Positions 39,569 to 40,265 of a stretch of 40,265 nt of DNA are shown here, in pieces; position 1 is the stretch's first letter; the number at the start of each line of letters is the position of its first letter. The DNA is from Lachnospiraceae bacterium (lineage in GTDB: Bacteria; Bacillota; Clostridia; Lachnospirales; Lachnospiraceae): assembly GCA_017561085.1 (NCBI GenBank), contig JAFZDQ010000022.1:1-40265 (forward strand), read 5' to 3'. The notes beneath the pieces were generated by a model. It was not told where the DNA came from. It made no database searches and saw nothing but the letters and a program-made list of their open reading frames with translations. The position numbers and the translations under genes are program-made.

Positions 39569-39745
39569 ATGTCAAACGTAATCGTAAAAGAGAACGAGAC
39601 TTTAGATAGCGCTTTACGTCGTTTCAAGAGAAGCTGCGCAAAAGCTGGTATCCAGCAGGAAATTCGTAAGAGAGAACACTACGAAAAGCCCAGCGTAAGA
39701 CGTAAGAAAAAATCTGAAGCTGCAAGAAAACGTAAATACAACTAA
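39569..39745 (+). CDS. rpsU: 30S ribosomal protein S21
   Basis: S21 is a small basic protein of the 30S platform that helps initiation by exposing the anti-Shine-Dalgarno end of 16S rRNA. The 58-residue product starts [21 protein letters not shown] and ends in a strongly basic tail ([15 protein letters not shown]), normal for Firmicutes. GGGAGG lies upstream of the ATG at a slightly long spacing (about 12 bases). It has its own promoter and terminator, so it is a single-gene unit, although readthrough from alaS is possible. Confidence 0.97.
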
Positions 39746-39755
39746 TGTAAGAATG

Positions 39756-39787
39756 AAGACTCCGAAGTTTTTTCGGAGTCTTTTTTT
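39756..39787 (+). terminator. Intrinsic terminator of rpsU
   Basis: AAGACTCCGAA (39756-39766) pairs with TTCGGAGTCTT (39772-39782), and the T run reaches 39787. Confidence 0.93.
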
Positions 39788-39789
39788 GC

Positions 39790-39935
39790 GCAGCTCGCGG
39801 AAAGGAAATTGTCGCTTCGCGACTCGCTCGCGCGCGGAGATTGCGCGAAGACGCAATCTCAATCAGAAGCAGCTCGCGGAAAGGAAATCAGCCGTAAACG
39901 GCACCGCGCGCGCGCGTGAGATTGCGTATACAATC
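39790..39935. repeat. Two diverged copies of a GC-rich modular hairpin repeat
   Basis: Two units of about 75-79 bases stand in direct repeat immediately after the rpsU terminator. Each starts with the identical 20-mer GCAGCTCGCGGAAAGGAAAT (39790-39809 and 39869-39888). A small hairpin with different sequence follows in each (GTCGC-TTC-GCGAC at 39811-39823; GCCG-TAAA-CGGC at 39891-39902). Then comes an alternating CG tract (39829-39836; 39905-39916) and GAGATTGCG (39837-39845; 39918-39926). In unit 1 this last block has a perfect partner CGCAATCTC (39852-39860). In unit 2 only GATTG/CAATC pairs (39920-39935). The GC content stands far above the surroundings. No coding sequence is visible in the 39746-39998 gap. 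Confidence 0.85.
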
Positions 39936-39998
39936 GAATTCTTTTTTGAAATTTGGCAGCATAATATGGTAGTAGAATCCATAGAGGGAGATTTGGTT

Positions 39999-40265
39999 GT
40001 GAAGAAACGATTAATCAGATTATTATGTTGTGCTTTTTGTGTTATGTTCCTATTTATGAATACGCTTCACGTAGTTGCGGCAGAGGATGTTTTTGCCGGG
40101 ACAGGGTCGGAAAATGCAGGAGAGAGTTCTGATGCAAAGGAAATAACGATGCCGGCGATATCCGGAGTAGAAGCCCCTTCTTACATACTTATGGAGGCGT
40201 CAACGGGACAGGTGATTTGTGAGTATAATGCAGATGAGAAGAGAAGTCCCGCCAGTATCACGAAG
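39999..40265 (+). CDS. D-alanyl-D-alanine carboxypeptidase (S11 family), N-terminal part cut by window end
   Basis: This is a penicillin-binding protein of the DacA/DacF type that trims the terminal D-Ala from peptidoglycan stems outside the cell. The start is GTG at 39999, eight bases after GAGGGAG. The 89 visible residues hold a signal peptide (MKKRLIRLLC, hydrophobic core, cleavage near VVAAED). A low-complexity Glu/Ser linker follows, and then the start of the S11 domain (SYILMEASTGQVICEYNADEKRSPASITK). The last four residues visible are the catalytic SxxK motif (SITK). The rest of the gene lies outside the window. The promoter is not clear. Confidence 0.9.
   Translation, partial: MKKRLIRLLCCAFCVMFLFMNTLHVVAAEDVFAGTGSENAGESSDAKEITMPAISGVEAPSYILMEASTGQVICEYNADEKRSPASITK

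What the first reader, a model, noticed from the sequence alone, without database searches (positions are those of the whole stretch)
39790..39935. Modular GC-rich repeat with a conserved hairpin position but changing hairpin sequence
Two direct units share a perfect 20-mer, a CG-alternating tract and a GAGATTGCG block. The hairpin after the 20-mer is GTCGC/GCGAC in one unit and GCCG/CGGC in the other, so structure seems kept while sequence changes. This suggests selection on a folded DNA or RNA, or a mobile REP-like family. The CG tract could also adopt Z-DNA. It sits exactly behind the rpsU terminator, where such elements would not disrupt genes. The unit layout is seen directly; the role is inference.
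Basis: partly seen in the sequence, partly recalled or inferred. Interest (0 to 1): 0.75.

Follow-up and report, generated by a model that had tools for sequence, protein, structure and literature searches.

The report
Terminator-hugging folded repeat of gut bacteria
The two repeats belong to a large, apparently undescribed family of small folded DNA elements that has spread through many Lachnospiraceae genomes, mostly by landing in one direction right behind transcription stop signals, keeping its shape while its letters change.

Summary
The repeat is real and is one locus of a genome-wide family. A covariance model of the ~52-nt core finds 54 matches in the window's genome. The core is 5'-ATGCGCA, stem P1, a purine bulge, hairpin H1, P1', GCGC-3', usually followed by a hairpin H2. 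Across 109 distinct cores, 13 of 18 pairs change on both sides (225 cells versus 57 in shuffles). It occurs in 35 of 150 genera sampled from the host's family, own included, and is rare outside it.

Copies mostly sit right behind intrinsic terminators, in sense, including T-box and riboswitch terminators. At nine loci relatives have the terminator but no element. Other Lachnospiraceae carry near-identical copies at unrelated sites. In one related family the core lies inside a ~145-bp transposon-like element.

Best reading: a non-autonomous mobile element that targets terminators, with a folded core. The mobilising enzyme is unknown: no Y1_Tnp or RVT_1 match in the host. No Rfam match; no description in the papers searched.

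The parts
39569..39745 (+). rpsU, ribosomal protein S21 gene whose terminator is the landing site
   Evidence: ORF; Pfam PF01165 E 9.9e-24
39758..39787 (+). rpsU intrinsic terminator: stem 39758-39766 / 39772-39780, T-run 39781-39787; acts as H0 of the array
   Evidence: sequence; hairpin ending at the core; terminators at the same place in relatives G016 and G006 without the element. The simple terminator scan did not list it
39786..39835 (+). unit 1 core: TTGCGCA, P1 5' strand 39788-39800, purine bulge, H1, P1' 39824-39835
   Evidence: R1 match 70.6 bits, E 7.1e-11
39801..39810 (+). unit 1 purine-rich bulge AAAGGAAATT (conserved AGGAA)
   Evidence: alignment columns
39811..39823 (+). unit 1 hairpin H1 GTCGC-TTC-GCGAC
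   Evidence: sequence; helix 2
39837..39860 (+). unit 1 hairpin H2 GAGATTGCG-CGAAGA-CGCAATCTC
   Evidence: fold; 47 of 54 own matches carry a >=7-bp stem here
39861..39868 (+). tail between tandem units
   Evidence: sequence
39865..39915 (+). unit 2 core (tandem copy, lacks ATGCGC at its 5' end; H1 = 39891-39902 GCCG-TAAA-CGGC)
   Evidence: R1 match 58.6 bits, E 2.2e-8
39918..39941 (+). unit 2 decayed H2 (GATTG/CAATC remnant)
   Evidence: sequence and fold
39999..40265 (+). downstream gene, D-alanyl-D-alanine carboxypeptidase (start of)
   Evidence: Pfam PF00768 E 5.7e-8

Best explanation
The repeat is a non-autonomous mobile element. SHOWN: it is dispersed in many copies; copies keep a core of two helices (P1 and H1) around a conserved purine bulge and 5' ATGCGCA / 3' GCGC, usually followed by a third helix H2; most sit in sense directly behind a hairpin, which is an intrinsic terminator or a palindrome that starts in the terminator's T-run; relatives have the same terminators without it. 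INFERRED: an enzyme acting in trans recognises the folded core (as single-stranded DNA or RNA) and inserts it next to a hairpin followed by Ts. Landing behind a terminator keeps it out of the host's main transcripts, and some copies bring their own terminator (H2 plus T-run), behind which further copies land, which is one way arrays grow. Unequal exchange between the repeated CAGCTCGCGG starts is another. The window copy is an old two-unit array with a decayed second H2.
For: Family: 54 matches in the own genome. Fold: 225 two-sided cells versus 57.3 in shuffles, and 88.3% of cells paired versus 12.6-58.6% when slid; a second set of 85 distinct cores, which shares 31 named source loci with the first, gives 228 versus 58.2. 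Position: 41 of 45 first-of-array copies have a >=8-bp hairpin ending <=10 nt upstream, versus 16% of 6892 random positions and 4 of 46 read inwards from the 3' side; hairpin plus T-run 19 of 45 versus 1.0% and 0 of 46. Orientation: nearest upstream ORF on the same strand in 40 of 46, opposite in 4, none in 2; two of the four opposite are really same-strand (rpmH; tRNA-Pro). Leader terminators: FMN, T-box and L10 leader in the own genome; T-box, SAM and L10 leader in relatives. Empty sites with the terminator kept: rpsU, rplL, hup, csp, rpmH, clpX, gpmI, ileS leader, pheS T-box. Mobility elsewhere: near-identical copies in unrelated flanks in Lachnospiraceae A2, Merdisoma, Butyrivibrio LB2008 and MAG MGG03559; in A2 and MGG03559 some next elements start behind the H2 T-run.
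Against: No mobilising enzyme is identified; the genome has no match to Y1_Tnp or RVT_1. By eye I see no target duplication or terminal inverted repeat in the window's lineage. In the f11 genomes the same core sits in an element with inverted ends whose upstream ORFs lie on either strand (4 same, 5 opposite, 2 none of 11), so terminator targeting is not a property of the core alone. A weak, diverged own copy behind the L10 leader is shared with G006, so some copies are simply inherited. Only 13 of 54 own matches have an H2 stem followed by a T-rich stretch. For 4 of 46 first copies (two at contig starts, two with no gene recognised) no same-strand upstream gene is established; one own copy (C27:30312) follows a stop codon without a terminator-like hairpin.
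Confidence: 0.62

Rival explanations
1. A host-useful structured RNA or post-terminator regulatory element: the fold binds a protein or ligand in read-through transcripts and tunes termination or stability; copies are kept by selection at each gene.
For: Strong covariation with a conserved bulge; sense orientation; copies between riboswitch or T-box terminators and start codons; some H2 stems are terminator-like.
Against: In one search of the genus, counts run from 51 and 29 down to 0 or 1 (R1 was built from the own genome, so divergent copies elsewhere are undercounted); upstream genes are of many kinds; empty orthologous sites; near-identical bursts; 9 of 46 downstream ORFs are convergent, so the element does not simply serve a downstream gene.
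Confidence: 0.13
2. The element is mobile DNA, but the kept pairing is produced by replication template switching that re-perfects inverted repeats, not by selection on a fold.
For: The mechanism is documented (PMC8794818, abstract and introduction). H0 arms extend into host-specific terminator sequence: at clpX the right arm is an inverted copy of the terminator arm and is absent from G006 and G016.
Against: P1 arms are separated by H1 and a bulge that keeps its sequence and side while both arms change; P1 and H1 do not change together; ATGCGCA and GCGC hardly vary.
Confidence: 0.2
3. A short retroelement (SINE-like): read-through RNA ending at the H2 T-run is reverse-transcribed into a nicked terminator T-run, as group IIC introns choose terminators.
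For: Same kind of target as group IIC introns (PMC3898094, passages); T-runs on both sides of many copies in A2, Merdisoma and LB2008; RVT_1 in 13 of 15 other carrier genomes.
Against: No RVT_1 match in the own genome, the richest one seen, nor in G020 or G341; RVT_1 is common anyway and I ran no set of non-carriers.
Confidence: 0.13
4. A classical REP/BIME moved by a RAYT (Y1) transposase.
For: Intergenic, palindromic, clustered.
Against: No Y1_Tnp match in the own genome (the control search found it in 5 of 14 reference genomes); bipartite P1/H1 fold with a long bulge; nearly fixed orientation.
Confidence: 0.03

Closest known systems
[quoted passage not shown]
   Same: Short, no gene, many dispersed near-identical copies, strong pairing; the f11 relative has 13-base inverted ends, and a nested insertion in it suggests a TA duplication.
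   Different: No terminal inverted repeat or target duplication seen by eye in the window's lineage; lies behind terminators in one orientation; internal fold covaries.
BOX / RUP / SPRITE repeats of Streptococcus pneumoniae (PMC3049150, passages)
   Same: Modular, with a central module that can be present in several copies; intergenic; folded if transcribed.
   Different: Different hosts and layout; no sequence comparison was made here. SPRITE is terminator-like itself rather than placed behind terminators.
Group IIC introns (PMC3898094, passages)
   Same: Choose DNA hairpins such as those of gene terminators as insertion sites.
   Different: Those are ribozyme introns with a reverse transcriptase gene; this core is ~52 nt, the whole element about 80-170 nt, with no gene.
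REP elements / RAYTs (PMC2817692, search listing and start of abstract)
   Same: Intergenic palindromic repeats in many copies, often in composite arrays.
   Different: No Y1 transposase domain found here; nearly fixed orientation; multi-helix core.

Membership tests
MITE | short, no coding capacity, many dispersed copies | tested here: met
   54 matches in the own genome; near-identical 120-170-nt elements in unrelated flanks in four other genomes
MITE | terminal inverted repeats | tested here: inconclusive
   none seen by eye in own-lineage copies (no systematic search); present in f11 relatives
MITE | target-site duplication | tested here: inconclusive
   TA duplication inferred from one nested insertion in f11; none visible at own empty sites, whose flanks are diverged
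MITE | autonomous partner with the same ends | not tested
   no transposase with matching ends was searched for; only PF01797 and PF00078 were
REP/RAYT | Y1-type (RAYT) transposase in the genome | tested here: not met
   0 matches to PF01797 at E<=0.001 in the own genome (95.92% complete)
Group IIC intron | insertion in sense behind terminator hairpins | tested here: met
Group IIC intron | intron ribozyme domains and encoded reverse transcriptase | tested here: not met
   no Rfam match at gathering in the window; no RVT_1 match in the own genome; element too short
Intrinsic terminator (H2) | hairpin followed by a T-run | tested here: inconclusive
   13 of 54 own matches are T-rich after an H2 stem; seen in most A2 and Merdisoma copies shown
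Any Rfam family | score above the gathering threshold | tested here: not met
   window; one Butyrivibrio-type copy and this locus with a permissive threshold: only matches far below gathering

The most novel reading that the evidence does not exclude
A bacterial SINE-like element: a folded RNA core plus terminator that copies itself through RNA into the T-runs of intrinsic terminators (riboswitch and T-box terminators included), mobilised in trans by an unidentified enzyme that reads the shape of a terminator hairpin. It would be a new class of shape-targeted mobile element spread across the Lachnospiraceae.
Probability: 0.14. Interest if true: 0.9.

Novelty: new variant of a known kind. Interest (0 to 1): 0.66.

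Why it matters
Small mobile repeats are usually seen as passengers with loose site preference. Here a widespread element lands behind terminators, nearly always in one direction, even inside riboswitch and T-box leaders, where it could change termination and read-through. Its covarying core with a conserved bulge points to a specific recognition event, so the unknown mobilising enzyme is a concrete target. It also offers a natural test of whether stems are kept by selection or by template switching, because one genome holds dozens of copies, several of which can be set against empty sites in relatives.

Tried and rejected
Rejected: a REP moved by a resident RAYT; a known Rfam RNA (the sub-gathering hits are microRNA and sRNA models with no bearing); a phage or plasmid repeat (exact pattern in viral contigs 0; own unit in plasmids no match; A2 element in phages no match, and in plasmids only three weak 35-nt matches in one coding gene of Paenibacillus plasmids). 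Z-DNA: no test was available; the tract is explained as a stem strand.

Led nowhere: single-sequence folding; promoter and terminator scan (two sigma-70-like sites, 0.8 expected; one terminator-like site, 0.9 expected, which is H1 read on the minus strand; the rpsU terminator was not listed, reason not checked). Literature: searches showed no description of this family, judged from titles and abstract beginnings only (20 of 173 papers listed, 20 of 36, 12 of 130; all; one search found none); the library is open-access only.

I left 12 loci of other phyla or distant hosts out, and L068 (a G010 hit that I did not inspect) out. RVT_1 as mobiliser: found in 13 of 15 carriers, 12 over the cut-off, but not in the own genome; no correlation is claimed.

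Limits: copy counts are lower bounds, because only 24-98 candidates per genome were scored. A4 and A5 are fitted to the model, which favours pairing; A4 includes the sequences R1 was built from and was used to build R2; A5 shares 31 source loci with A4. Gene calls in own loci are simple ORF rules, not annotation. In one search, 3 of the 14 loci given were not matched by my pattern.

Full report
WHAT IS IN THE WINDOW. Behind rpsU (39569-39745; Pfam S21) lie the rpsU terminator (39758-39787) and two tandem units 79 nt apart. Read with the family at hand, each unit is: GCGC-A-GC-TC-GCGG (P1, 5' strand), a purine-rich bulge, hairpin H1, CCGC-TC-GC-GCGC (P1, 3' strand), then hairpin H2. Unit 1 is complete. 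Unit 2 has lost the 5' ATGCGC and its H2 has decayed.

IT IS A FAMILY. The inner 17-mer with up to two mismatches has 32 matches in the genome and the reversed pattern none. A covariance model from 26 cores finds 54 matches at E<=0.1 in the 2.96-Mb genome, 52 at E<=1e-3; one of them (C131) is probably a second assembly of this locus. Most are single; some form tandem arrays of two or three with a period near 79 nt.

THE FOLD IS KEPT WHILE THE SEQUENCE CHANGES. In the own genome H1 appears as GTCGC/GCGAC, ATTGC/GCAAT, GTTGC/GCAAC and GCCG/CGGC, and P1 changes too, for example TGACGCG/CGCGTCA on C22 and C109. In other species P1 can be wholly different, for example GGGGTGTG/CACACCCC in G002, yet ATGCGCA, the AGGAA-like bulge and GCGC stay. 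Over 109 distinct cores 88.3% of 1830 cells pair; 225 cells have two-sided changes against 57.3 in shuffles, and sliding the partner gives 12.6-58.6% paired. A second set of 85 distinct cores from named genomes and other genera, which shares 31 source loci with the first, gives 228 against 58.2. H2 is more variable: 47 of 54 own matches have a stem of at least 7 bp directly after the core, with 40 distinct 5' arms, against 230 of 1080 shuffled stretches. Many longer copies have a further small hairpin before ATGCGCA, such as CGC-TCC-GCG or TGCAC-TTC-GTGCA: 67 of 115 copies not directly behind a T-run, against 548 of 2300 shuffles.

IT SITS BEHIND TERMINATORS, IN SENSE. Of 46 first-of-array own matches, 45 have enough flank. 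A hairpin of at least 8 bp ends within 10 nt upstream in 41 of 45, against 16% of 6892 random positions; read inwards from the 3' side the figure is 4 of 46. Hairpin plus T-run: 19 of 45, 1.0%, and 0 of 46. Of 24 copies without a direct T-run that I folded with longer flanks, 20 show, by eye, a host terminator followed by a palindrome (often TTCATAGGAAATTCCTATGAA) whose left arm starts in the terminator's T-run; C97, C92:44506, C46 and C2 do not. The nearest upstream ORF is on the same strand in 40 of 46, opposite in 4, none in 2. Of the four opposite, one is behind rpmH and one behind a tRNA-Pro, both same strand and missed by the ORF rule; two stay unclear, and the two without an upstream ORF are at contig starts. 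Downstream ORFs are mixed: 33 same, 9 opposite, 4 none. The terminator need not end a gene: Rfam places an FMN riboswitch and a T-box directly before own copies and an L10 leader before a weak one, and a T-box, a SAM riboswitch and an L10 leader before copies in relatives. 40 of 44 own loci and 20 of 24 loci of the genus relatives were scanned.

IT WAS INSERTED. At rpsU, relatives G016 and G006 have a terminator at the same place and the carboxypeptidase gene but no unit. The same holds at eight more loci tested in up to four relatives: rplL, hup, csp, rpmH, clpX, gpmI, the ileS leader and the pheS T-box. At hup G006 carries an H0-type palindrome without a core; at gpmI G016 has neither terminator nor element, and at csp G003 has a different terminator. 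At csp the flanks of G016 and G000 can be followed closely: T-run, three units and a partial CAGCTTTCGGAA, then related sequence. In contrast, a diverged own copy behind the L10 leader is shared with G006, so at least one insertion looks older than the species split.

IT IS MOBILE ELSEWHERE. In Lachnospiraceae bacterium A2, Ca. Merdisoma merdipullorum, MAG MGG03559 and Butyrivibrio sp. LB2008 (named), nearly identical 120-170-nt elements (palindrome, small hairpin, core, H2, mostly a T-run) lie in unrelated flanks, usually right after a hairpin with a T-run; in A2 and MGG03559 further elements start in the T-run of an earlier element's H2. In three genomes of another family of the order (f11) the core lies in a ~145-bp element with ends TATAGTAAACGAC and its complement; in G318 and G341 many copies are near-identical and several G341 contigs end in it; one copy is interrupted by another element with an apparent TA duplication. 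There the orientation rule fails: of 11 loci examined the upstream ORF is on the same strand in 4, opposite in 5, absent in 2. I did not test terminators there formally.

WHERE IT OCCURS. R1 in 60 relatives: 13 hit at E<=0.01, own included, all in the genus (one, G010, not inspected); the richest besides the own genome is G002 with 29. R2 at E<=0.001: 35 of 150 genomes of the family, one per genus, own included; 11 of 196 in the order, 8 in the own family and 3 in f11; 3 of 245 in the class, all own family. Counts are lower bounds. That the own family is Lachnospiraceae is inferred: G316 matches Butyrivibrio hungatei NK4A153 records at corresponding coordinates. No match in phages (A2 element); none in plasmids for the own unit.

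MECHANISM. Shown: dispersal, covariation, terminator position, empty sites. Inferred: insertion by an enzyme in trans that recognises the folded core and a hairpin-plus-T target. The own genome has no match to the Y1 transposase domain or RVT_1, so the enzyme is another kind, or lost, or in the missing ~4% of the assembly. Group IIC introns are the nearest case of terminator choice (PMC3898094, passages). A puzzling clue is that the palindrome before many cores extends into host sequence: at clpX its right arm is an inverted copy of the terminator's 3' arm that G006 and G016 lack. This could be a by-product of insertion or of template switching, which can by itself create and repair stems (PMC8794818, abstract). 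I therefore hold the claim 'selection on a fold' below the claims of mobility and terminator placement.

NOVELTY. No Rfam family matches, and seven literature searches showed no description in the titles and abstract beginnings listed. The kind, small interspersed folded repeats, is known (BOX, RUP, SPRITE, MITEs; PMC3049150 and PMC10969869, passages). Placement in sense behind terminators together with a covarying core is, to my knowledge, new, hence 'new variant of a known kind'.

I corrected the independence of the second alignment, the f11 orientation statement, the number of copies without an established upstream gene, the literature coverage and the inverted-repeat test (now inconclusive). 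None of these required new odds.

Noticed in passing
L049 (own genome C109:4563), rpmH-rnpA spacer: A partial unit ends directly at rnpA: GCGCAGCTCGAGGAGAGGAAATTTAATATG. The purine bulge of the element may now serve as the rnpA ribosome-binding site.
   Followed up: no
L056 (own C27:53061, clpX-lon); also L092 (C114) and L046 (C108): The palindrome in front of the core extends into the host terminator: its right arm is an inverted copy of locus-specific terminator sequence; at clpX this arm is absent from two relatives.
   Followed up: partly
L007 (own C30:28371): A copy whose H1 loop is enlarged by a further hairpin (GCACAAG...CTTGTGC), as if something had inserted into H1.
   Followed up: no
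L275 (G341:C20:7328-7572): A second, different small element is nested in the loop of the f11 element, with an apparent TA target duplication.
   Followed up: partly
L142, L143, L234, L226 downstream of the core: Some copies carry a longer module after the core (paired AGTCCG / CTCCC...GGGGAG / GTCCGC..GCGGAC parts) in place of the simple H2.
   Followed up: no
L290 (G006 hup locus): An H0-type palindrome TTTCATAGGAAATTCCTAT without a core sits at the terminator where the own genome has a core: the modules can occur apart.
   Followed up: no
L038:251-300 (own) and L061 (G006): Both genomes carry a copy behind the L10 leader terminator; the own copy is strongly diverged (28 bits). Probably an old shared insertion.
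   Followed up: partly
own contig C131:1-431: 97% identical to the window's right end (39835-40265); probably a strain variant or split assembly of the same locus.
   Followed up: partly
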